This document shows, in pieces, positions 698 through 23,710 of a stretch of DNA of 61,902 nt. The stretch lies in IMG/VR virus record IMGVR_UViG_3300005530_000008, positions 1 to 61,902 of that record, one strand, 5' to 3'. Each line of letters begins with the position of its first letter. The stretch's first letter is position 1. Made by a program: the position numbers and the translations under genes. The notes beneath the pieces are model-generated. The model was not told the DNA's origin. It did no database searches and saw nothing but the letters and a program-made list of their open reading frames with translations. Source of the stretch: a virus.

Positions 698-1256
698 CGT
701 CATCTGCTTGTCCGACCGTCCCGACCTACTACCTACCCTCGTCTGGAGCCTTCATAATCAGACGCACAAAGATTGGGAACTCGTCATTCTCGACCAAACG
801 CCGACGTCGGACGTATGCCAGAACGTGAACGATATTCTTGTTCAGCATAAGAGTCAGGTCAAGGTTCGATTCGTTGAGCGAATCGGTGACTGGGGACAGG
901 CTCAAAAAGTGCAGGCTGCAAAAACCGTCGCCACCGGTGACGCGTTCATGTTCCCGAATGATGATTCATACTATATGCCTCGCGCTTTGGAGCTGATGTC
1001 GAGGACCTTGGCGATGAGGGAGAAGGACCTCGCGATTTGCGCCTGGATTTACGGCAAGTACGGCTATGGCTGGATGCCAGCACGTGCAAAAATCGGGTAC
1101 GTGGACGTCGGCGGATTCATGGTCACCCGTAAAACTTTCGAGCGGGTGGGCTGGCAGAGCTTTACGCAGACTGGCGATGGTGAGTTCGTCGAAGCGTGCG
1201 TAGAGATGGGAGCTCGGGTTGCGCTGATTGGGGAGACTCTGTATGTCCAAAATTGA
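687..1256 (+). CDS. GT2-family glycosyltransferase (GT-A fold)
   Basis: This 189-residue protein starts at ATG 687. The N-terminus (MKVSVICLSDRP, then SLHNQTHKDWELVILDQ) is the nucleotide-sugar-binding beginning of family 2 glycosyltransferases, and FPNDDS near residues 89-94 is the DxD-like metal motif. It is short for the family and lacks membrane segments, so it should be cytosolic. The cytidylyltransferase that follows overlaps it by 14 nt, suggesting a pair that makes and transfers an activated group. The acceptor could be phage DNA, a virion protein or a host glycan; nothing here decides which. Confidence 0.82.
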   Translation: MKVSVICLSDRPDLLPTLVWSLHNQTHKDWELVILDQTPTSDVCQNVNDILVQHKSQVKVRFVERIGDWGQAQKVQAAKTVATGDAFMFPNDDSYYMPRALELMSRTLAMREKDLAICAWIYGKYGYGWMPARAKIGYVDVGGFMVTRKTFERVGWQSFTQTGDGEFVEACVEMGARVALIGETLYVQN

Positions 1257-1719
1257 CTGGACTTTCATCGCAGCGCACAACCGAATTGCCCCGTGGCGGC
1301 GTGCGTACATCGGTGGCACGTTCGACTGTTTGCATCGCGGTCATCTGGCGCTGTTTGCTGCAGCCAAGAAGATCTCGAGCGAGCTTGTGGTGAGCGTGAA
1401 CCGAGATGAGTTCGCTACGCGGTACAAGCGGGTCCCTCTGATGCCCCTAGCGGATCGCATGGCTGTGCTGTCAGCGTGTAACTTGGTCGACCGCGTCATC
1501 CTCAACGAGGGGGATGAGGACAGCAAGCCGGCAATTCTAAGGGCCGAAGTCGACTGCATCATTCATGGCTCTGATTGGCTTGGCGACTCGTTACTTCAGC
1601 AAATGGGGCTCACGGCCGAGTGGCTCAAAGAGAAGCAGGTTGATCTGGTTATCCTGCCCTACACCGAGTGGACGAGCACAACGCAGTTGCTGGAAGCCTA
1701 CGAATCCCGCAAGAAATGA
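1243..1719 (+). CDS. Cytidylyltransferase-like nucleotidyltransferase
   Basis: A 158-residue protein starting at ATG 1243 and overlapping the glycosyltransferase gene. GGTFDCLHRGH (residues 24-34) is the nucleotide-binding HxGH motif of the CTP:glycerol-3-phosphate cytidylyltransferase and heptose-phosphate adenylyltransferase superfamily, and a WTSTTQL segment near the C-terminus matches the second signature (usually ISTT). It should join CTP or ATP to a phosphorylated small molecule with release of pyrophosphate. The substrate cannot be read from sequence. Coupling with the upstream glycosyltransferase suggests a shared pathway. Confidence 0.85.
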   Translation: MSKIDWTFIAAHNRIAPWRRAYIGGTFDCLHRGHLALFAAAKKISSELVVSVNRDEFATRYKRVPLMPLADRMAVLSACNLVDRVILNEGDEDSKPAILRAEVDCIIHGSDWLGDSLLQQMGLTAEWLKEKQVDLVILPYTEWTSTTQLLEAYESRKK

Positions 1720-14899: not shown

Positions 14900-15248
14900 G
14901 GGGGTGTCCTGGTTTCGACGGGGATCGTGAATCGTGTGTGCGTGCCGAGCAAGCTCTTAACTCGTTAATCTGAGGGCGATTCTGCTAAACGCGGAACCCG
15001 AATTCGCTCGCGCGGCCTAACACCCGCGCGCTGACACCGCCGACGCCGATACGGCGGACCGTCAGTCATAATTTCGGCTGGCTAATGCTGGGAGAACAGA
15101 GTCCGAGGGGACCGGCATGGCGAGACAACTCGCGGACGCGACAGTAATACCCGTTGACCGCGGGCAGAGGGTCTGCGAAAGGTCACGCACGTAGATGCAT
15201 GCGATGAAGGATTTTCGGACGGGGGTTCGATTCCCCCCACCTCCACCA
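14900..15248 (+). ncRNA. ssrA: Transfer-messenger RNA (tmRNA)
   Basis: The 349-nt RNA has all landmarks. The 5' end GGGGGUG pairs with CACCUCC before ACCA at 15245-15248, with a G3:U70 pair, the alanine identity element. The segment GGUUUCGACGGGG is the conserved tRNA-like D region, and CGGGGG-UUCGAUU-CCCCC is the T arm. An open tag frame runs to a TAA at 15018-15020 located in the loop of a GCGCGG/CCGCGC stem, as in helix 5. The frame ends EFARAA; the resume codon is probably one of 14976-14991. CCA is encoded. Phage tmRNAs are known from actinophages. It would rescue stalled ribosomes and tag their products. Confidence 0.95.
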
Positions 15249-15507: not shown

Positions 15508-15729
15508 ATGCAGCTGACCGCAAGGGAACTGGTTTTAGCCGCGCTGCGCAAGAAATCGCCGCAGACATGCTACGAACTTGCCAAGCTCCTTGACCTTCAA
15601 CCTGCCAGCCTCTCTTCCACACTCAACCGTATGTGGCATAACGGTGAGATAGAACGGGGAAAAGATTCTAAGAATCCCCTGAAAGGAATGCAGTATTGGA
15701 TCGCCAAGCCACCCGGTCAAAACGAGTAA
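15508..15729 (+). CDS. Small winged-helix DNA-binding protein
   Basis: A 73-residue protein. Residues 4-55 follow the winged-helix order: LTARELVLAALRKKSP, a helix-turn-helix (TCYELAKLLDLQPASLSSTLNRMWHNG) and a short wing (IERGKDSKNP...QYWIA). It resembles MarR- or IclR-type DNA-binding domains without a ligand domain. With its leaderless promoter carrying a palindromic -35, autoregulation or control of the TGTACA promoters is a reasonable guess. Confidence 0.75.
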   Translation: MQLTARELVLAALRKKSPQTCYELAKLLDLQPASLSSTLNRMWHNGEIERGKDSKNPLKGMQYWIAKPPGQNE

Positions 15730-16466
15730 GAGAGGACCGCAGATTCGACAAAACTCAGTTACATGCAAGCGGACACGGGAGAATCGTGAACAGAGACTAT
15801 GCATCGCACTTCTTTCGATGGGGCTGGGTTTCACGGCAAGTCAAACAGGGCGAGTCGATTCTCGACATCGGCTGCGGACAGGACCTTCCCCTCCTGTACG
15901 TACTGGGAAATCGAATCCAGACTGTTCCTGACCTATATGTCGGCGTCGATCTCAACAACATCCCCAAGAAGACCAACACCCGCTGGGCCGACATCCACGA
16001 CAACTTCGACTTCGTCACCAACGGGAAGGCTCTGGTCGATGCCCGTTACACTCCATTCGATAAAGCCGTTTGCTTCGAAGTAATCGAGCACATGGCGCCG
16101 GATGACGGGGCAAAGTTGCTCGACAACCTGTTCTACGCTCTCCGACCAGGTGGTCTTCTGTACCTCTCGACTCCAGTGTTCGATGGACTCGCCGCAGCCA
16201 ACCACATCCACGAGTGGACAATTCCCGAACTCGCTGAAGCTGTCAAACTCGCCGGATTCGAGATCGAAAAGCGTATCGGCACATTCGCATCCAAGCCTGC
16301 AATTCGACGGGCGATGATCGAGGCCAATGACAAAGCGGGGCTTGATGTCTACGACAGACTTGAAGACTGGTTCGGCGGAGACGTCATGGCCACCTTTATT
16401 GCCGCTCTCTATCCGGACGCGTCGAGGAACAATCTCTGGGTTCTGCAAAAGCCCATGGAATCGTGA
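15696..16466 (+). CDS. Class I SAM-dependent methyltransferase
   Basis: A 256-residue protein. ILDIGCGQDLP is motif I (SAM binding), followed by LYVGVDLN (acidic residue for the ribose) and, later, AVCFEVIEHM and LRPGGLLYLSTP, the usual class I order. TTG 15696 is chosen because it has AAAGGA upstream and because conserved-looking residues before the later GTG (HASGHGRIVNRDY) would otherwise be lost. The substrate is unknown; related phage enzymes are encoded near DNA metabolism genes. The adjacent LAGLIDADG-type frame overlaps its end. Confidence 0.85.
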   Translation: MDRQATRSKRVREDRRFDKTQLHASGHGRIVNRDYASHFFRWGWVSRQVKQGESILDIGCGQDLPLLYVLGNRIQTVPDLYVGVDLNNIPKKTNTRWADIHDNFDFVTNGKALVDARYTPFDKAVCFEVIEHMAPDDGAKLLDNLFYALRPGGLLYLSTPVFDGLAAANHIHEWTIPELAEAVKLAGFEIEKRIGTFASKPAIRRAMIEANDKAGLDVYDRLEDWFGGDVMATFIAALYPDASRNNLWVLQKPMES

Positions 16467-16794
16467 GCTACTCGCTTGGGCGGCAGGATTCTATGATGGC
16501 GAAGGTTGCACAGGGTTTCACAGTAAAGTTGTTAGTGGCGGAGGTCGAAGCGAACAAGTAAGTTGCGGTGTTAACCAAAAATACCGTGGCATACTTGAGA
16601 AATTTCAGCTTGCCGTTGGTGGCGCAGGTTCGATATATGTGATGGGTAACGGACAAGGTTACATGTGGAGAACTGGACATTTTCAAGATGTTCAGTTTAT
16701 TTCGTGTCTTTTGTGGCCTTGGCTATCGGAAAGAAAAAGGGCTCAGATCGTTGAAACACTGAGCAGATACCATCAGTCTAGAAGTCGTCGCTAA
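16327..16794 (+). CDS. LAGLIDADG-type homing endonuclease-like ORF with an unclear start
   Basis: The conserved part begins WAAGFYDGEGC (a single LAGLIDADG motif) and continues with a QKYRGILEKFQ and YMWRTG layout typical of single-motif homing enzymes. In its frame the nearest ATG codons (16327, 16345) lie deep inside the methyltransferase gene and no start codon occurs between there and the motif. It may be translated by a +1 shift at the methyltransferase stop, from an unusual start, or be a remnant. The true product is probably about 110 residues. Confidence 0.65.
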   Translation: MTKRGLMSTTDLKTGSAETSWPPLLPLSIRTRRGTISGFCKSPWNRELLAWAAGFYDGEGCTGFHSKVVSGGGRSEQVSCGVNQKYRGILEKFQLAVGGAGSIYVMGNGQGYMWRTGHFQDVQFISCLLWPWLSERKRAQIVETLSRYHQSRSRR

Positions 16795-16795
16795 G

Positions 16796-17392
16796 TTGGG
16801 TAATCGGCCTTGTCCTCGCTGCAACTCTAAGGTCTGGTGGTGGCGGGATTTTGACGGTTGCTCGAAGTGTCTCAATGAAGACGGAACGGAGAAATTTGAT
16901 ATGTTGACCGAATACAAAGGCGAGCCAGCGGGATGCCAGCATCACGGGCTCCATTCATCGTTTCCTACTTGCCATCTGCGCGCGCTGTACCAGTATGATG
17001 GTCCCGACGGAACGATCCTGCTCTGTACGCCGCACGCGGCAAAGATCAGGGATCACTTCCAGAACCGTGCCGATGCGGACTACAGCGAAGTGACCCGTTT
17101 CGCCCCGCCGCCGGCTCAGACCGTAGTTCTTGACCCGCTCGTCGTTGACACCGCGACCGATGTCGAGGAAGAAGAGCCGGTGATTCAGGCTCAAGACTCG
17201 ACGGCCTTTGCCGGCGGTGAGTCGGGCGGAGGGGGTGGCGGTGCAGATTTTGGCGATAGCGATGACAGTGTCGTTCCAGGGTCGAGCGCTGCAGAATCTG
17301 AGAATCTTTCTGCTAGCGCTGATAGCGCTGGGAGTAACGACTCTTCTCCTTCGTCGGAAGTGAGCGATTCCGGCTCGACCGATGGAAACTAA
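16796..17392 (+). CDS. Zinc-ribbon protein with a long low-complexity tail
   Basis: A 198-residue protein starting at TTG 16796. The first 30 residues hold CPRC and CSKC pairs, and residues 45-85 hold a second Cys/His set (CQHHG, CHLR, CTPHAA). From about residue 105 it is acidic, then Gly- and Ser-rich, and likely disordered. It overlaps ThyX by 11 nt. The role is unknown; the tail suggests a scaffold or recruitment function. Confidence 0.6.
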   Translation: MGNRPCPRCNSKVWWWRDFDGCSKCLNEDGTEKFDMLTEYKGEPAGCQHHGLHSSFPTCHLRALYQYDGPDGTILLCTPHAAKIRDHFQNRADADYSEVTRFAPPPAQTVVLDPLVVDTATDVEEEEPVIQAQDSTAFAGGESGGGGGGADFGDSDDSVVPGSSAAESENLSASADSAGSNDSSPSSEVSDSGSTDGN

Positions 17393-18152
17393 ACTTCTCG
17401 ACCACGGCTACACCAAGCACATTGAGTCCTGGGGCTCCGATGAAGCGATCATCGAAGCCGCCAGGATGTCAACAAGCAAGGGATTCCTCGGGTGGGGCCC
17501 CAAGCCCTGCCCGCATTGCAGCGCTGGTGAACTTGTTTGGGGAAGAGGCTGCAACAAGTGTGAGAACACTGGCAGGGTTCTCGGTGACGAGAAGCTGCTT
17601 CGCTACCTCTATGAGCACAGGCACGCCACCCCGTTCGAAATGGCCGGCATGACCATCGAGATTCAAGCGCCGATTTTCGTGTTCAGGGAGTGGCACCGGC
17701 ACCGAACGCAATCATACAACGAGATGAGCGGCCGGTATGTCGAACTTCCTGAACTTTCGTACGTGCCGTCGCGTGAGCGACTCGAGCACGGATTCCAGGC
17801 AACGAAGAACAAACAGAGTAGTGAATACCAGCCGCTCACCGATGAGATGTACCTTATCCTCAAACACGAGTTCGAGGACAACTATCGGGACTCTTGGGCT
17901 CGATATCAGCGGTTGCTAAAAGCTGGCATCTCAAGAGAACTGGCCTGCAGGGTGCTTCCAACAACGCAGTATTCTCGAATGCGGGCGAGCGCGAATCTAC
18001 GTAATTGGTTGGCGTTCCTAACATTACGAATGGACACGGCAGCTCAGTGGGAGATTCGCCAATATGCAAACGCCGTCGGAGACTTCATCGCTCAGACGTT
18101 TCCTCGAACATGGGAGCTATTCGCAGAAAATGGCCAAAATCATCGTTCTTGA
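17382..18152 (+). CDS. thyX: Flavin-dependent thymidylate synthase with a zinc-knuckle insertion
   Basis: A 256-residue protein. The ThyX signature RHRxxSxNxxSxR is complete at residues 106-118, and EHRHATPFE and the ERA-like SRELACRVLP helices match the FAD and dUMP sites. It makes dTMP from dUMP using methylene-tetrahydrofolate and NADPH. Between the N-terminal strand and the first helix there is a CxxC-x10-CxxC knuckle (C43, C46, C57, C60) not found in the classical enzyme. The neighbouring genes are all in nucleotide metabolism. Confidence 0.93.
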   Translation: METKLLDHGYTKHIESWGSDEAIIEAARMSTSKGFLGWGPKPCPHCSAGELVWGRGCNKCENTGRVLGDEKLLRYLYEHRHATPFEMAGMTIEIQAPIFVFREWHRHRTQSYNEMSGRYVELPELSYVPSRERLEHGFQATKNKQSSEYQPLTDEMYLILKHEFEDNYRDSWARYQRLLKAGISRELACRVLPTTQYSRMRASANLRNWLAFLTLRMDTAAQWEIRQYANAVGDFIAQTFPRTWELFAENGQNHRS

Positions 18153-19086
18153 GGGACCCGACGGCTCCGGCAAAACAACGCTCGCCCAGGAGTTTGTCAA
18201 GCGCTACGGTTTCGAGTACGTCCACCTGGGTGTTCCGTCGACGTCAGAGGACCTGTTCGAGACCTACGTCACGGTTCTCATCAACGCCCGCGACTCGAAG
18301 AAGAACGTCGTCATCGACAGACTTCATATGGGCGAGGCAACTTACGGGAAGATTTACCGCGGTCAGGACCGCCTCGGCACCCAGGGTGTCAAACTCCTGA
18401 CCCGCATCCTGAACGGCTACGGAGCAAGCGTCGTCGCGTGCTTGCCACCTTACGAAGTTTGTCTCGCAAACTGGAAATCAAGGCATGCAACCGAGTATGT
18501 CGCCGATGAAGTTCCATTCGAGGCCATTTACTCCGAGTATCGGAAATTGTCCGACATGCTCGATTTCGGAGTAACGGGCAAGTACGACTACACCAAGATG
18601 CCGCTAGACATGGCAGTCGACGTTCTCATGTCGTCATTCTGCGACAGGAAAGCTCTGCCTCCCGGGGTGATCGGGTCGACGTCTCCAGCATTTCTTTTCA
18701 TCGGTGAGCGGGCCAACTCGACGCTTATCGACCTCCCGTTCATGGCTTTGAACGCGAGCAGTAGCTATCTGAACGGTTGCATCGAAGAAGCTGGCTATCT
18801 CGAGCGCGAGTTCGCGATGATGAACGCCGTCAGAATCGACGGTAAGTCATGGCGGCCTAGTGAGGTTTGGGAAACCCTGGGTCAGCCAATTCCAGTGTTC
18901 CTTGGTCAAGAATCACGGCGGCACTTCAACACCGGCGAGAATAGCACAGCTGGTGTCCTGATGCCACACCCGGCTTATTGGAAACGTTTCCGGAGCAGTG
19001 AGAAAAACACCTACGTGGACATGCTCCGCAAGATAAGGTTGGCATCGTACAATGGTCTTGGCAATCACGGGCAGCAGCTTTCATGA
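18130..19086 (+). CDS. P-loop nucleotide kinase fused to a possible uracil-DNA-glycosylase-fold domain
   Basis: A 318-residue protein starting at ATG 18130. Residues 1-185 are a thymidylate-kinase-like P-loop domain with GPDGSGKTT (9-17) and DRLHMGE as the substrate/Walker B region. Residues 190-318 hold FLFIGERAN, an NA motif (MMNAV), VFLGQESRR and MPHPAYWKRF, in an order that recalls uracil-DNA-glycosylase-fold domains. It should phosphorylate a deoxynucleoside monophosphate, possibly the product of the TS homologue next door. The second domain's assignment is tentative. Confidence 0.72.
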   Translation: MAKIIVLEGPDGSGKTTLAQEFVKRYGFEYVHLGVPSTSEDLFETYVTVLINARDSKKNVVIDRLHMGEATYGKIYRGQDRLGTQGVKLLTRILNGYGASVVACLPPYEVCLANWKSRHATEYVADEVPFEAIYSEYRKLSDMLDFGVTGKYDYTKMPLDMAVDVLMSSFCDRKALPPGVIGSTSPAFLFIGERANSTLIDLPFMALNASSSYLNGCIEEAGYLEREFAMMNAVRIDGKSWRPSEVWETLGQPIPVFLGQESRRHFNTGENSTAGVLMPHPAYWKRFRSSEKNTYVDMLRKIRLASYNGLGNHGQQLS

Positions 19087-19906
19087 GGCATGGGAACGGC
19101 TTCTTTCACACCTAATTTGCGGAGACCAGCGATCACCAAGAGGTCAGGAGACCTTCGAGCGGCTTGGCGTGGTCCTTCGAGTCGAGAACGCTTTACAGAA
19201 TATCCTGGTCCACCCGCGACGGAACTTGAACTACAAGTTCATGGTCGCCGAGTGGCTCTGGATTATGGCCGGAAGCGATAACCTCGGCGCCATCGCCCAG
19301 TACAATTCTCGGCTTGCACAGTTCAGCGACGACGGTGTAGTGCTTGCTGGAGCCTATGGACCGAGAATTGAGCACCAGCGGCGTTGGGTTCTTAATAAGC
19401 TCACCGAGACCGACACTCGTCAAGCGGTGATTTCGATTTGGACCCCAGCTCCACCAGCCTCGAAAGATATTCCATGTACCCTAACACTGCAGTTCCTGCG
19501 TCGCGGTAATGTCATTTCCCTGATCGTGGGGATGCGTAGCTCGGATATCTGGCTTGGTCTTCCCTACGATTTTTTCGTCTTTTCACAACTTCTAAACTGC
19601 ATCTGCGGCGAGTTGCGATGTGATCCGGGCTTTGTTCAGTTCAACCTGGGGTCATCTCACCTTTACTCCCGTGACCTAGAGGGAGCCATGGGGCTCCTTG
19701 ATGATATCTCCAGTGGGTATTCTTTAAGTTCACTAGGGACCCCAGGGATGCCCCCGCGATGGCTCCTAGGCGTCTTGTGGCACCCTCATTCCGGCGTAAT
19801 CGACGCGACCGACGATCCGAGATGGTGGCGCTACGCGCAGATTCTCAAGGCACCAAGAACGGAAGCTCTTGACATACTTGGAAGGCAAAGTTGTGAATCG
19901 ACCTAA
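19052..19906 (+). CDS. Thymidylate synthase homologue, probably a dCMP (hydroxy)methylase
   Basis: A 284-residue protein with the TS fold: catalytic Cys142 in DIPCTL, the MRSSDIWLGLPYD block (161-173) and HLY (203-205). In TS the last block ends PFN, and that Asn selects dUMP. Here it is Asp173 (PYD). The same Asn-to-Asp change distinguishes T4 dCMP hydroxymethylase and shifts engineered TS toward dCMP. Since the genome already has ThyX for dTMP, this enzyme probably acts on dCMP to give 5-hydroxymethyl- or 5-methyl-dCMP. It overlaps the kinase gene by 35 nt. Confidence 0.8.
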   Translation: MVLAITGSSFHEAWERLLSHLICGDQRSPRGQETFERLGVVLRVENALQNILVHPRRNLNYKFMVAEWLWIMAGSDNLGAIAQYNSRLAQFSDDGVVLAGAYGPRIEHQRRWVLNKLTETDTRQAVISIWTPAPPASKDIPCTLTLQFLRRGNVISLIVGMRSSDIWLGLPYDFFVFSQLLNCICGELRCDPGFVQFNLGSSHLYSRDLEGAMGLLDDISSGYSLSSLGTPGMPPRWLLGVLWHPHSGVIDATDDPRWWRYAQILKAPRTEALDILGRQSCEST

Positions 19907-20339
19907 TCTCGACGTCTACTTCATGCGAATGCTTCGACTCGTAGCGTCAAGGTCCACGTGCTCACGCCGAAAGGTCGGTGCGATAATCACCGATAACAAG
20001 GGACACGTCCTGTCGATGGGCTATAACGGGGTTGTGTCTGGGGCGACTCATTGCACCGACGAGCCGTGTGCAGGTGCACTGGACAAGTCAGGAGACTCTT
20101 CTCGGTGCCAAGCCGTACATGCCGAAATGAACGCTGTCTTGCAATGCCGAGCTCCTGAGCGCGCGGCCGTTATTTACACATCCACGTTCCCGTGCTTCAC
20201 CTGCGCGAAAGTGATTGTGAATGTCGGAATCACTCGAGTGGTTTTCGAAGAAGATTACCCCGACACGTTAGGCAAGGAATTGCTCTGGAACCGGGGAATT
20301 TCAGTCGTCCACATGGCGGTTCCCGAATATGAGCCGTAA
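19893..20339 (+). CDS. dCMP deaminase family protein
   Basis: A 148-residue protein starting at GTG 19893 behind GGAAGG (TTG 19869 is an alternative). HAE (76-78) and PCFTC (100-104) are the zinc ligands and proton-shuttling Glu of the cytidine deaminase fold; an N-terminal CxxC-less Zn site is suggested by C54, C59 and C72. It should convert dCMP to dUMP, feeding ThyX, and could also clear unmodified dCMP. It overlaps both neighbours. Confidence 0.9.
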   Translation: MNRPNLDVYFMRMLRLVASRSTCSRRKVGAIITDNKGHVLSMGYNGVVSGATHCTDEPCAGALDKSGDSSRCQAVHAEMNAVLQCRAPERAAVIYTSTFPCFTCAKVIVNVGITRVVFEEDYPDTLGKELLWNRGISVVHMAVPEYEP

Positions 20340-22176
20340 TCGACCAAAGGGCGACGTTCAGGGCAGTCTCTTGAGTCAGATATCCCCAGACACCGGGTGG
20401 AGGGCTCCTGAGAGTCTCCCGGTTTTAGATTCCCGTTTCAAGCGCCTCAGCTACGACTGTGAGGCGGACGGTGTCGATTGGCATGGGGACTCGATGCCCG
20501 TCGGCTTCTCATTTTGCCTCGAGGACCATCGCAAGTTTTACTTGCCAGTAAATCACCGCGGCGGCGGTAACCTTGACAAGGGCGTTGTTCGCCGCTGGAT
20601 GCAGAATGAGCTCAAGGGCAAAACGCTTGTTACTCTGTCCGGCAAGTTCGACATCCAGATGGCCCGCAAATTCGGGGTCGACCTTGAAGAGATCGGATGT
20701 TCGATCAGGGAAGTTCAGCATAAAGCCGCTCTCCTGAGCGATCAGCGGCGATCGTTCAAGATGGACGACATGCTGTTCGACTTCCTAAAGCGGAGGAAGC
20801 ATGACATTGACAGATCCAGAATTTGGGAACTTCCCGCATATGAAGTCGGTCCTTATGCCGAGTCTGACGCCGAAGATACCTTGGACCTGGACGACCACCT
20901 CGCTCCTCTCGTTACCGAGCAAGAACTCGACGGAGTCCTTGATCTGGAAGATTCCATCGTCTATGCTGTTTGCGAGATGGAGCGGAACGGGGTACCTCTT
21001 GACCTTGAGTTGCTGAACCGTTGGAGCACGAAATCGCGTCGTCGGTTTGAGAACATCGTTTTCATGATCTCGCAGGCAACGGGTCTAAAGGTTAACCCGA
21101 ATTCGGGACACGACCTTGCTCAGCTGTTCGGTCTACTCCAGCTTGAGTATCCGAGAACCGAACCTACAGAGCGCTTCCCGAATGGTCAACCTAGCTTCAC
21201 TGATGAGTTTCTGAAAGAAGTTAACCACGAAGTTGTTCAGCTGGTAAGGGAAGGCCGTGGCATTGATAGCCTGGACTCCAAGTACTTTAGAAAGTATCTT
21301 AAAGCCCAGAGAAACGGAATTCTTTACTACCAGCTTCATCAGCTCAAGGGTGACGCCGATTACGGCACTATTTCGGGACGGTTCTCTTCCAGCCACGTCA
21401 ACATTCAGCAGGTGTTTGATCCCGAGCGTCAAGCCGACAAGACGGGGCTCAGGGACTTCCTTGTTCGGTACCTCTTCAAACCGGCACCCGGGTGCTACTG
21501 GCTTAAGGCTGACGCAAGTCAGATTGAGTTCAGATTTTTCGTTCACTACTCCAGATCCGCCCGACTCATTAAGATCTTCAACGATTACCCAGATACTGAC
21601 TTCCATGAACAGGTCGCTGAATTCTGCTCTATTAAACGGAAGCCAGCCAAGACCGTCAACTTCCTTATGCTCTACGGTGGAGGCAAGGATAAGTTGGCCT
21701 TTCAGCTTGGAACCGGAAGGAAAGAATCCGACGCGCTCTACGCTGAGTACAATAAGCGGTTTCCTGAGACTCGAGATCTGATGGACGAAGTGATGCGGGT
21801 CGCAAAGACTCGCGGCTACGTCAAGACCATCAAGGGCAGGCGAGCTCGATTCCCGAATGGTGAACGGCTCCACAGCGCCCTGAACCGCGTGCTCCAAGGT
21901 AGCTCGGCAGACTACCTTAAGATCAAGCTCAGACAGCTGTACAATGCAAGAAAGCGCCTGGGGCTGTTGCTTAGGATGACCGTTCACGACGATTTCGGCG
22001 GGGATCTCAAGGATCCCAAGATGGGCGAAAAAGTCAAGGAACTGCTCGAGGAACCGGTGCCAGAGCTTAAGATGCGCGTTCCGCTGAAGTGGGACGTCGA
22101 CGTCGCTAGCAGTTGGGGTGAGGCCTCGATTCCCAAAAAGTGGAAAAAAGAAGGCTGGGAGTTACCAGCAGCATGA
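20329..22176 (+). CDS. polA: Family A DNA polymerase with 3'-5' exonuclease
   Basis: A 615-residue polymerase, the size of phage PolA without a 5' nuclease. The exonuclease residues are present: D43/E45 (YDCEADG), a SGKFDIQ Exo II and a YAESDAEDT Exo III. Polymerase motif A is KADASQIEFR, motif B is RKPAKTVNFLMLYG, motif C is TVHDDF. In motif B the residue equal to Phe762 of E. coli Pol I is Phe, the state usually linked to fast, lytic phages. Motif A lacks the common Tyr (DYSQIE becomes DASQIE), and motif C has HDD rather than HDE. Confidence 0.95.
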   Translation: MSRNRPKGDVQGSLLSQISPDTGWRAPESLPVLDSRFKRLSYDCEADGVDWHGDSMPVGFSFCLEDHRKFYLPVNHRGGGNLDKGVVRRWMQNELKGKTLVTLSGKFDIQMARKFGVDLEEIGCSIREVQHKAALLSDQRRSFKMDDMLFDFLKRRKHDIDRSRIWELPAYEVGPYAESDAEDTLDLDDHLAPLVTEQELDGVLDLEDSIVYAVCEMERNGVPLDLELLNRWSTKSRRRFENIVFMISQATGLKVNPNSGHDLAQLFGLLQLEYPRTEPTERFPNGQPSFTDEFLKEVNHEVVQLVREGRGIDSLDSKYFRKYLKAQRNGILYYQLHQLKGDADYGTISGRFSSSHVNIQQVFDPERQADKTGLRDFLVRYLFKPAPGCYWLKADASQIEFRFFVHYSRSARLIKIFNDYPDTDFHEQVAEFCSIKRKPAKTVNFLMLYGGGKDKLAFQLGTGRKESDALYAEYNKRFPETRDLMDEVMRVAKTRGYVKTIKGRRARFPNGERLHSALNRVLQGSSADYLKIKLRQLYNARKRLGLLLRMTVHDDFGGDLKDPKMGEKVKELLEEPVPELKMRVPLKWDVDVASSWGEASIPKKWKKEGWELPAA

Positions 22177-22464: not shown

Positions 22465-22878
22465 GTGAACTATGCCGAGCTGGGAGGCAGATATGACCGG
22501 CTGTTACTAGAAATAGCAGCTCTGCGCACATGGCTAAATGTAGCCGATGACGTTGGCCTAATCGAGGCCGTGTCTGCTTCCATCGATCGCGCCTTTAAGA
22601 ATGGAAAGGCGGCTACCCAGCCGGAGGTTTGTATCTGTGCCGCCGTCAAGATGGGTGACCTGATTATCCGAGGCCATCGACATGACGACTGCATCCGGAA
22701 CTTGGTGAATAGGGGGTTGGACCCGCGACCCATTGAGCAGGGGTTCATCACGTCCCGTAACCGATTCGTGGATCGCAAGGAGGCGATGAAGTTACAGCTA
22801 GCAGCTGGCGCCAAATCCGCCTACTCTCACGATGGGGAATTGCACGGTACTATTCTCTTTTCAGAGGACCTGTACTAA
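22465..22878 (+). CDS. Phage protein with RGHRHDDCI and TSxNRFVxRxEA motifs
   Basis: A 137-residue protein starting at GTG 22465 behind AAGGAG. The C-terminal half has the order RGHRHDDCIRNL, then QGFITSRNRFVDRKEAMKLQ, which I recognise as a widespread uncharacterised phage family, often near metabolism genes. A helical N-terminus precedes it. The role is unknown. Confidence 0.65.
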   Translation: MNYAELGGRYDRLLLEIAALRTWLNVADDVGLIEAVSASIDRAFKNGKAATQPEVCICAAVKMGDLIIRGHRHDDCIRNLVNRGLDPRPIEQGFITSRNRFVDRKEAMKLQLAAGAKSAYSHDGELHGTILFSEDLY

Positions 22879-23321
22879 TGACCGAAAGCGAGTACTCTGG
22901 AAAGATTGTGAAGTACCTCCGGGACATGGGGAACCTCACATTCAAACACTGTGACCGGTTCACTCGGGCTATCCCCGATGTAAGTTCGACCGGGCCGATG
23001 GGAACTGCGTGGATGGAAATGAAGTACCTGAAACGGGGTGAGCAGTTCTACGATCGAGCTATGGAGAAGAAGGACCAGTACTTCAATATGCTGGCCCTCT
23101 CCTCCCTGAGCCGCGCTTTCTACGTTATGGGACGCGGCGATAAGACCTGGATTTTCAACCCCAAGATTTTCATGAAGCGCGCTACGAATGACGAGCTCGA
23201 GCAATTAGCAAAGTGGGAGGGAACTCGACTCCCTGAACTCAGCGACCTTGCCTTTCGCCCAGTGGTAATTCCGATTAACGACTACGGAACGATTCTCCGA
23301 TTCACGAGGGACCCAAAATGA
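22878..23321 (+). CDS. PD-(D/E)XK nuclease (VRR-NUC/Holliday-junction-resolvase type)
   Basis: A 147-residue protein. IPDVSSTG (D34) followed by AWMEMKYLK (E47, K49) is the PD-(D/E)xK catalytic core, and the following helix with KKDQYFNML and LSSLSRAFYVMG matches VRR-NUC domains. It would cut branched DNA during replication or packaging. Its start overlaps the upstream stop by one base. Confidence 0.78.
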   Translation: MTESEYSGKIVKYLRDMGNLTFKHCDRFTRAIPDVSSTGPMGTAWMEMKYLKRGEQFYDRAMEKKDQYFNMLALSSLSRAFYVMGRGDKTWIFNPKIFMKRATNDELEQLAKWEGTRLPELSDLAFRPVVIPINDYGTILRFTRDPK

Positions 23322-23710
23322 CGCACGAAGACTTGGTTCGCGAGTTCATGGTCAAGCATGATCAGTTCAGGGCAGGTGAGCCCACGCCACACATCCCGAT
23401 GGACGTGAAGATTCTGCGTCTTCGGCTGATGATGGAGGAGCTGGGCGAGGTCGCGATGGCGATTCATTCGGGAGACCTCGAGCTGATTGCCGACGGACTC
23501 GCCGACCTGGAATACGTCGTCGTCGGGACGGCCATCGCTTTCGGTATCCCTCACAGCGCGGTCTTCAAAGAGGTGCACCGCTCCAACATGACCAAGCGCC
23601 CGTTGGACAAAACCAACAAGGGCGGGAAGGTCACGAAGGAAGGCTACGAGCCTCCGCAGATCACCGAGGTCATCACGAGGGCGCTTTTAGCCCAATCAAG
23701 TGAAAAGTAG
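23318..23710 (+). CDS. MazG-like nucleotide pyrophosphohydrolase
   Basis: A 130-residue all-alpha protein. MMEELGEVAMAI (E40, E41, E44) and DGLADLEYVVVGTAIAFGI (D59, D63) form the EExxE and DxxxD metal site, and FKEVHRSNMTK is the usual third helix of phage MazG-type proteins. It should hydrolyse a nucleoside triphosphate to monophosphate and pyrophosphate, perhaps a modified or unwanted dNTP, or (p)ppGpp-related nucleotides. Confidence 0.85.
   Translation: MTHEDLVREFMVKHDQFRAGEPTPHIPMDVKILRLRLMMEELGEVAMAIHSGDLELIADGLADLEYVVVGTAIAFGIPHSAVFKEVHRSNMTKRPLDKTNKGGKVTKEGYEPPQITEVITRALLAQSSEK

What the first reader, a model, noticed from the sequence alone, without database searches (positions are those of the whole stretch)
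19052..19906. TS homologue with the dCMP-selecting Asp beside ThyX, a kinase and a dCMP deaminase
The residue that selects dUMP in thymidylate synthase (Asn in PFN) is Asp (PYD) here, as in T4 dCMP hydroxymethylase, while ThyX already supplies dTMP. The next genes are a nucleotide kinase fused to a second domain and dCMP deaminase. This suggests that the phage makes a 5-substituted dCMP for its DNA, possibly as protection from restriction. The GT2 glycosyltransferase and cytidylyltransferase near the left end could add further groups.
Basis: partly seen in the sequence, partly recalled or inferred. Interest (0 to 1): 0.8.

Follow-up and report, generated by a model that had tools for sequence, protein, structure and literature searches.

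The report
Phage pathway for modified cytosine DNA
This virus of bacteria carries an enzyme that looks built to attach a hydroxymethyl group to the DNA letter C before it is copied into viral DNA, next to a methyl-adding enzyme that in related viruses alternates with a sugar-adding enzyme, which hints at a C disguise not yet described against bacterial DNA-cutting defences.

Summary
ORF 19052-19906 is a thymidylate-synthase-fold protein with Asp at the base-selecting position (D173 = T4 D179 / E. coli N177). It also has Asp three residues before the catalytic Cys (D139 = T4 D145), the published mark of hydroxymethylases, and the Arg and Ser that favour deoxyribose. The best prediction is a dCMP hydroxymethylase, not a TS or a dCMP methylase. 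ThyX, a nucleotide kinase fused to a UDG-fold domain, dCMP deaminase, PolA and a MazG/PRA-PH pyrophosphohydrolase surround it. This module recurs in many phages. Phage AXL3 has the same module plus ThyX, and its DNA resists 35 of 37 restriction enzymes, all with G/C in their sites.

A class I methyltransferase (15696-16466) recurs beside this module. Sister phages carry instead a glycosyltransferase whose model resembles T4 beta-glucosyltransferase. Of 180 distinct loci 84 have the methyltransferase, 46 the glycosyltransferase and none both, with about ten swaps on the tree. I propose that it caps 5hmC, perhaps as 5-methoxymethyl-dC (inferred, untested). The GT2 and cytidylyltransferase at the left end are not part of the module. 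Verdict: new variant of a known kind.

The parts
15696..16466 (+). Class I SAM-dependent methyltransferase (256 aa), EVIEH and NHIHE motifs; proposed decorator of the hydroxymethyl group
   Evidence: PF13489 9.6e-15; conserved next to the module; profile nearest UbiG O-methyltransferase 4.5e-11 and HEN1 4e-9; never with the GT family
16327..16794 (+). Probable homing endonuclease-like ORF overlapping the end of the methyltransferase (not part of the pathway)
   Evidence: phrog_5046 HNH endonuclease 1.2e-8; LAGLIDADG_1 only 0.06
17382..18152 (+). ThyX, flavin-dependent thymidylate synthase: supplies dTMP without needing DHFR
   Evidence: PF02511 9.9e-44; ThyX motif RHRTQSYNEMSGRY
18064..19086 (+). 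P-loop (deoxy)nucleotide kinase (about residues 24-195) fused to a UDG-fold domain (about residues 200-330)
   Evidence: phrog_761 thymidylate kinase 8.5e-21; profile to YorR 2.1e-15 and to Thermus UDG 3.8e-6; AF2 pLDDT 88.5; Foldseek YorR and UdgX
19052..19906 (+). TS-fold dCMP hydroxymethylase (predicted); C142 nucleophile, D139 (T4 D145), D173 (T4 D179), E67, Y102, R123, S163
19869..20339 (+). dCMP deaminase
   Evidence: PF00383 7.3e-21; phrog_174 3.9e-46
20329..22176 (+). Family A DNA polymerase with 3'-5' exonuclease domain; would incorporate the modified dCTP
   Evidence: PF00476 6.9e-52
22878..23321 (+). Small protein at the position where MW202510 has a gene annotated VRR-NUC; conserved in L006
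   Evidence: tblastn 34% in L006; no Pfam or PHROG match
23318..23710 (+). MazG/PRA-PH-type nucleotide pyrophosphohydrolase; possible dCTP-lowering enzyme
   Evidence: PF01503 4.7e-14; phrog_671 5.2e-22; recurrent neighbour

Best explanation
The locus is a pathway for replacing cytosine in phage DNA with a 5-hydroxymethylcytosine derivative. The TS-fold enzyme (19052-19906) adds methylene from CH2-THF to C5 of dCMP through C142, holds the cytosine with D173, and lets water (activated by D139) rather than hydride complete the reaction, which gives 5hm-dCMP and THF. The adjacent kinase would phosphorylate it, dCMP deaminase and the MazG-like pyrophosphohydrolase would drain plain dCMP/dCTP, ThyX makes dTMP from the resulting dUMP, and PolA incorporates the modified nucleotide. 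The methyltransferase at 15696-16466 then most likely caps the hydroxymethyl group, on the nucleotide or in DNA. Shown here: sequences, residues, gene neighbourhood, mutual exclusion of decorators. Inferred: every catalytic step. The stated confidence is for the 5hm-dCMP pathway; for the methyltransferase step alone I give about 0.45.
For: (1) Residues: D173 = base selector; D139 three residues before Cys = T4 D145, which the T4 dCMP hydroxymethylase structure paper names as the hydroxymethylase signature, with D145N unable to make 5hm-dCMP (PMC6400193); R123 and S163 = deoxyribose type (PMC5175136). (2) The same residues sort the reference enzymes: dUMP-hydroxymethylase-type proteins (SPO1, Yuavirus LKO4, phiD3, Montesquieu) are D/N, Xp12-relative DoCa10 is N/D, E. 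coli ThyA L/N, T4 and MilA D/D. (3) The best solved-structure match is MilA CMP hydroxymethylase, 3.8e-25, far ahead of any TS. (4) PF00303 with Asp177 co-occurs with PF01503 and PF00383 in cytosine-modified contigs (PMC8670742); all are present here. (5) No DHFR, as expected if THF, not DHF, is released. (6) Sister phages with the same kinase-HMase-deaminase-PolA order carry a GT whose AF2 model is most like T4 beta-glucosyltransferase by TM-score (TM 0.61), the enzyme that glucosylates 5hmC. (7) The methyltransferase and this GT never co-occur: 0 of 50 whole records (20 and 16), 84/46/0 of 180 distinct TS, about 10 swaps on the tree. Of 80 loci fetched by the methyltransferase alone 60 hold a TS-like gene, all 60 D/D. 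(8) AXL3 has methyltransferase, NTP-PPase, kinase-UDG, this enzyme (D/D), deaminase and ThyX, and its DNA was cut by only 2 of 37 enzymes, both with A/T-only sites (PMC7504290).
Against: No nucleoside analysis exists for this phage or, in the literature I could search, for AXL3. The T4 Ser94 signature (Ser or Thr two residues before Tyr96) is not met: the window has Gly, as do 244 of 271 family rows and also Yuavirus LKO4. T4 gp42 is distant from this clade. Methyltransferase substrate is inferred from context only; its nearest solved relatives act on quinones and RNA ends. Over a quarter of loci (50 of 180) show neither decorator. The loci are often fragments, and exclusion p-values ignore shared ancestry.
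Confidence: 0.82

Rival explanations
1. The TS-fold enzyme is a dCMP methylase: it reduces the methylene intermediate and gives 5-methyl-dCMP, so the DNA holds plain 5mC as in Xp12.
For: Asp at position 177 alone turns a TS into a dCMP methylase (Liu and Santi 1992, cited in PMC8670742); Xp12 relatives carry Asp there too.
Against: Xp12 relatives DoCa10 and A1432 have Asn, not Asp, at Cys-3 and Pro at 147, and AXL1/Xp12-type phages encode DHFR (PMC9206674), absent here. T4 D145N makes no 5hm-dCMP, so Asp at Cys-3 points the other way. The TS C-terminal tail is not recognisable (Pfam match ends at 219 of 266). Relatives carry a BGT-like GT, expected only with 5hmC.
Confidence: 0.1
2. The enzyme acts on dUMP and is either a second thymidylate synthase or a dUMP hydroxymethylase.
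For: Many homologues are annotated thymidylate synthase or deoxyuridylate hydroxymethyltransferase, and AXL3's authors read it as TS.
Against: Asn177 is the dUMP-type residue in TS and dUMP hydroxymethylases; here and in nearly all close relatives it is Asp. ThyX already makes dTMP.
Confidence: 0.05
3. The 5hmC pathway is real, but the methyltransferase has another job (for example HEN1-like RNA-end methylation, or methylation of another position such as N4), and the DNA carries plain 5hmC or another group.
For: Profile relatives include HEN1 and UbiG; class I methyltransferases are catalytically diverse.
Against: Tight linkage to D/D hydroxymethylases (60 of 60) and strict alternation with a BGT-like GT are what one expects of an alternative decorator of the same group.
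Confidence: 0.4
4. The enzyme makes ribonucleotide 5hm-CMP for a small molecule, as MilA does.
For: MilA is the nearest solved structure.
Against: The two residues that make MilA prefer CMP (Lys133, Ala176) are Arg and Ser here (PMC5175136); context is DNA replication.
Confidence: 0.03

Closest known systems
T4 dCMP hydroxymethylase gp42 with gp1 kinase, cd deaminase, gp56 dCTPase and beta/alpha-glucosyltransferases
   Same: Asp179, Asp145, Cys148, Glu60 and Tyr96 equivalents; same logic of dCMP hydroxymethylation, kinase, deaminase and removal of plain dCTP; relatives carry a BGT-fold GT
   Different: Low sequence similarity (22%); Gly at the Ser94 place; dTMP from ThyX, not a TS; kinase carries a UDG-fold domain; here a methyltransferase instead of a glucosyltransferase
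MetaGPA module: TS (Asp177), PRA-PH, dCMP deaminase, with 5hmC carbamoyltransferase (PMC8670742)
   Same: Same three domains in one cluster, Asp177, changed residue 147 (Thr)
   Different: No carbamoyltransferase; the decorator candidate is a class I methyltransferase
Stenotrophomonas phage AXL3 (PMC7504290) and Pseudoxanthomonas phage PW916
   Same: Methyltransferase, NTP-PPase, kinase-UDG, D/D TS-fold enzyme, deaminase in one row; AXL3 also has ThyX; AXL3 DNA is resistant to enzymes with G/C sites
   Different: 37-39% identity; gene order around PolA differs; annotated by their authors as thymidylate synthesis or deoxyuridylate hydroxymethyltransferase
Xp12-type dCMP methylation (Bosavirus; 5mC replaces C)
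   Same: Asp177, dCMP deaminase neighbour
   Different: Asn at Cys-3, DHFR present, no methyltransferase or kinase-UDG neighbour in the relatives read here
MilA CMP hydroxymethylase (mildiomycin)
   Same: Nearest solved structure; Asp177 and Asp at Cys-3
   Different: Ribose determinants Lys133/Ala176 absent; phage DNA context

Membership tests
dCMP hydroxymethylase (T4 gp42 type) | Catalytic Cys (T4 C148) | tested here: met
   C142, invariant in 179 of 179
dCMP hydroxymethylase (T4 gp42 type) | Asp selecting cytosine (T4 D179) | tested here: met
   D173
dCMP hydroxymethylase (T4 gp42 type) | Asp three residues before Cys (T4 D145), published signature of hydroxymethylation | tested here: met
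   D139
dCMP hydroxymethylase (T4 gp42 type) | Ser or Thr two residues before the active-site Tyr (T4 S94) | tested here: not met
   Gly100; also Gly in 244 of 271 family rows and in LKO4. So I claim that it works like T4 gp42, not that it is a close member of that lineage
dCMP hydroxymethylase (T4 gp42 type) | No TS C-terminal tail closing over folate | tested here: met
   Pfam match ends at profile position 219 of 266; no tail motif in the alignment
dCMP hydroxymethylase (T4 gp42 type) | Deoxyribose preference: Arg123 and Ser (MilA K133R/A176S) | tested here: met
   R123 and S163 (PMC5175136)
dCMP hydroxymethylase (T4 gp42 type) | Makes 5hm-dCMP in vitro | not testable with these tools
   Needs enzyme assay
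Thymidylate synthase ThyA | Asn177 and hydrophobic residue at Cys-3 | tested here: not met
   Asp and Asp
dUMP hydroxymethylase (SPO1 gp29 type) | Asn at 177 | tested here: not met
   Asp173
Xp12-type dCMP methylase | Asp177 with Asn at Cys-3 and phage DHFR | tested here: not met
   Asp at Cys-3; no DHFR. Xp12 itself was not in the collection; relatives DoCa10 and A1432 stand in
MilA CMP hydroxymethylase | Lys133 and Ala176 ribose pocket | tested here: not met
   Arg123 and Ser163
5hmC carbamoyltransferase system | Carbamoyltransferase domain PF02543 | tested here: not met
   None in the record
T4 beta-glucosyltransferase-type decoration | BGT-fold GT of family A5 in the same genome | tested here: not met
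   Absent from the window, present in sister records
UDG superfamily (C-terminal domain of the kinase) | UDG fold with GE(x)N and HP motifs | tested here: met
   glycosylase activity not tested

The most novel reading that the evidence does not exclude
The phage and a wide family of relatives (including AXL3) carry O-methylated 5hmC, 5-methoxymethyl-2'-deoxycytidine, made by a dedicated methyltransferase that is the evolutionary alternative to beta-glucosyltransferase. The kinase-UDG fusion would be a quality gate that removes a wrong (for example deaminated) nucleotide before phosphorylation.
Probability: 0.35. Interest if true: 0.82.

Novelty: new variant of a known kind. Interest (0 to 1): 0.62.

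Why it matters
Hundreds of phage contigs carry this enzyme: 448 relatives of it passed confirmation in one scan, and many relatives in public records are labelled thymidylate synthase. Reading them as dCMP hydroxymethylases changes the predicted chemistry of their DNA. The alternation of a methyltransferase with a BGT-like glycosyltransferase points to a cytosine decoration for which I found no report, and it can be tested directly on cultured phages. If true it adds a small, uncharged cap to the known ways of hiding 5hmC from restriction.

Tried and rejected
GT2 (651-1256) and cytidylyltransferase (1228-1719) as decorators: no homologues near the module. DHFR in the window: none. Carbamoyltransferase: none. 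Xp12 record MT664984: not in the collections, so relatives were used. Pfam and PDB sequence searches for the GT family gave nothing; only the fold search identified it. The A2 scan is biased, because one of its patterns contains KD[IV]PCT; so I repeated the residue count on loci fetched by the kinase (33 of 36 distinct D/D) and by the methyltransferase (60 of 60). Literature search for methoxymethylcytosine in phage: no paper in the library, which holds open-access papers only. Handle limits cost four failed calls.

Full report
What was checked. The window is a 61,902-base IMG/VR virus record, linear, possibly a fragment. ORF 19052-19906 encodes an intact TS-fold protein. Its Asp173 aligns with E. 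coli ThyA Asn177 and T4 gp42 Asp179. The neighbours are: class I methyltransferase 15696-16466; an HNH-like ORF 16327-16794; ThyX 17382-18152; kinase plus second domain 18064-19086; dCMP deaminase 19869-20339; PolA 20329-22176; and a MazG/PRA-PH pyrophosphohydrolase 23318-23710. Structural genes (terminase, portal, major head, tape measure) lie on the other strand.

Which reaction. Asp at 177 selects cytosine, but by itself turns a TS into a dCMP methylase, so it does not say methyl or hydroxymethyl. The T4 dCMP hydroxymethylase structure paper (PMC6400193) names Asp145, three residues before the catalytic Cys, as the signature of hydroxymethylation; D145N makes no 5hm-dCMP and TS has Leu there. 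The window has KDIPC, so Asp. Across references the two positions (Cys-3, then 177) sort the known activities: E. coli ThyA Leu/Asn; SPO1, LKO4, phiD3 and Montesquieu Asp/Asn (dUMP hydroxymethylase type); DoCa10 and A1432, relatives of the 5mC phage Xp12, Asn/Asp; T4 and MilA Asp/Asp; window Asp/Asp. The deoxyribose-type Arg and Ser (PMC5175136) are present. The Ser94 signature is not met: the window has Gly, as does nearly the whole family. The nearest solved structure is MilA, not a TS. No DHFR is found, in keeping with enzymes that release THF (the hydroxymethylase, and ThyX by general knowledge of that family).

How widespread. One scan of viral contigs gave 448 confirmed relatives. In a set fetched by the kinase alone, 33 of 36 additional distinct TS-like genes were Asp/Asp. 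Kinase, TS-fold enzyme and deaminase are adjacent in most. The kinase's C-terminal domain is a UDG-superfamily fold: profile match to Thermus UDG 3.8e-6, AF2 pLDDT 88.5, Foldseek UdgX. Its motifs GERANS and HPAYWKRF are conserved in kind. What it does is open; removal of a wrong nucleotide is a guess.

The decorator. The methyltransferase at 15696-16466 has homologues within 3.5 kb of the module in 38 of 80 loci. Other relatives carry instead a protein with no Pfam or PDB sequence match. Its AF2 model (pLDDT 88.9) has its highest TM-scores with T4 beta-glucosyltransferase (1j39, 0.61), and T4 alpha-glucosyltransferase is also among the matches. The two never occur together: TS-first sample 38 and 16 of 80, none both (hypergeometric p 6e-6); whole records 20 and 16 of 50, none both at full strength, though two GT records have a weak generic methyltransferase match (p 3e-5); all distinct TS 84, 46, none both of 180. 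The last set was partly sampled by the two families themselves, so its p-value is not meaningful alone. Parsimony on the TS tree gives about 10 swaps, one of them close to the window (L032 with the GT beside L036 and the window clade with the methyltransferase; support for that node is moderate). Of 80 loci fetched by the methyltransferase alone, 60 hold a TS-like gene and all 60 are Asp/Asp. Its motif ExxEH and a downstream His are invariant. The ExxEH stretch aligns with UbiG O-methyltransferase and bacterial Hen1; from general knowledge, such motifs bind a metal for O-methyl transfer. I therefore propose that it methylates the hydroxymethyl oxygen, with confidence of about 0.45.

Independent experimental hint. 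AXL3 carries methyltransferase, NTP-PPase, kinase-UDG, the Asp/Asp enzyme and dCMP deaminase in a row and also ThyX. Its DNA was cut by 2 of 37 enzymes, both with A/T-only sites (PMC7504290). Its authors read the cluster as thymidylate synthesis and left the modification open. MetaGPA (PMC8670742) found TS with Asp177, PRA-PH and dCMP deaminase enriched in cytosine-modified contigs.

Right on Asp, on dCMP and on the likely outcome; wrong on the GT2 and cytidylyltransferase; did not see the methyltransferase, the Asp at Cys-3 or the nature of the kinase's second domain.

Limits. Every catalytic step is inferred. Contigs are often fragments. Exclusion statistics ignore shared ancestry apart from the parsimony count. 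The literature library is open-access only.

Noticed in passing
14900-15248 (+): ARAGORN predicts a tmRNA with tag AEPEFARAA* inside the phage gene block, between replication genes; a phage-encoded tmRNA rather than a flanking host gene.
   Followed up: no
L024:3007-3909 (Microbacterium phage SansAfet): TS-like protein with Asp at 177 but Ile at Cys-3 and Met at 147, close to a DHFR gene: predicted dCMP methylase, so possibly 5mC DNA in these phages.
   Followed up: partly
L002:2552-2950, L003:2229-2666, L004:8727-9107: A small protein with LCGSTRFYK motif near the module in several relatives, reminiscent of nucleoside deoxyribosyltransferase/MilB-type N-glycosidases; not found in the window.
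   Followed up: partly
L115 (IMGVR_UViG_3300028072_000006): A relative with the GT-B gene but Asn at Cys-3 of its TS-fold enzyme, an exception to the two-residue pattern.
   Followed up: no
16327-16794 (+): HNH-like ORF overlapping the end of the methyltransferase gene in another frame, perhaps a homing endonuclease beside the pathway.
   Followed up: no
1228-1719 (+): GTFDCLHRGHL motif, glycerol-3-phosphate-cytidylyltransferase-like ORF next to a short GT2; no relatives near the module.
   Followed up: partly
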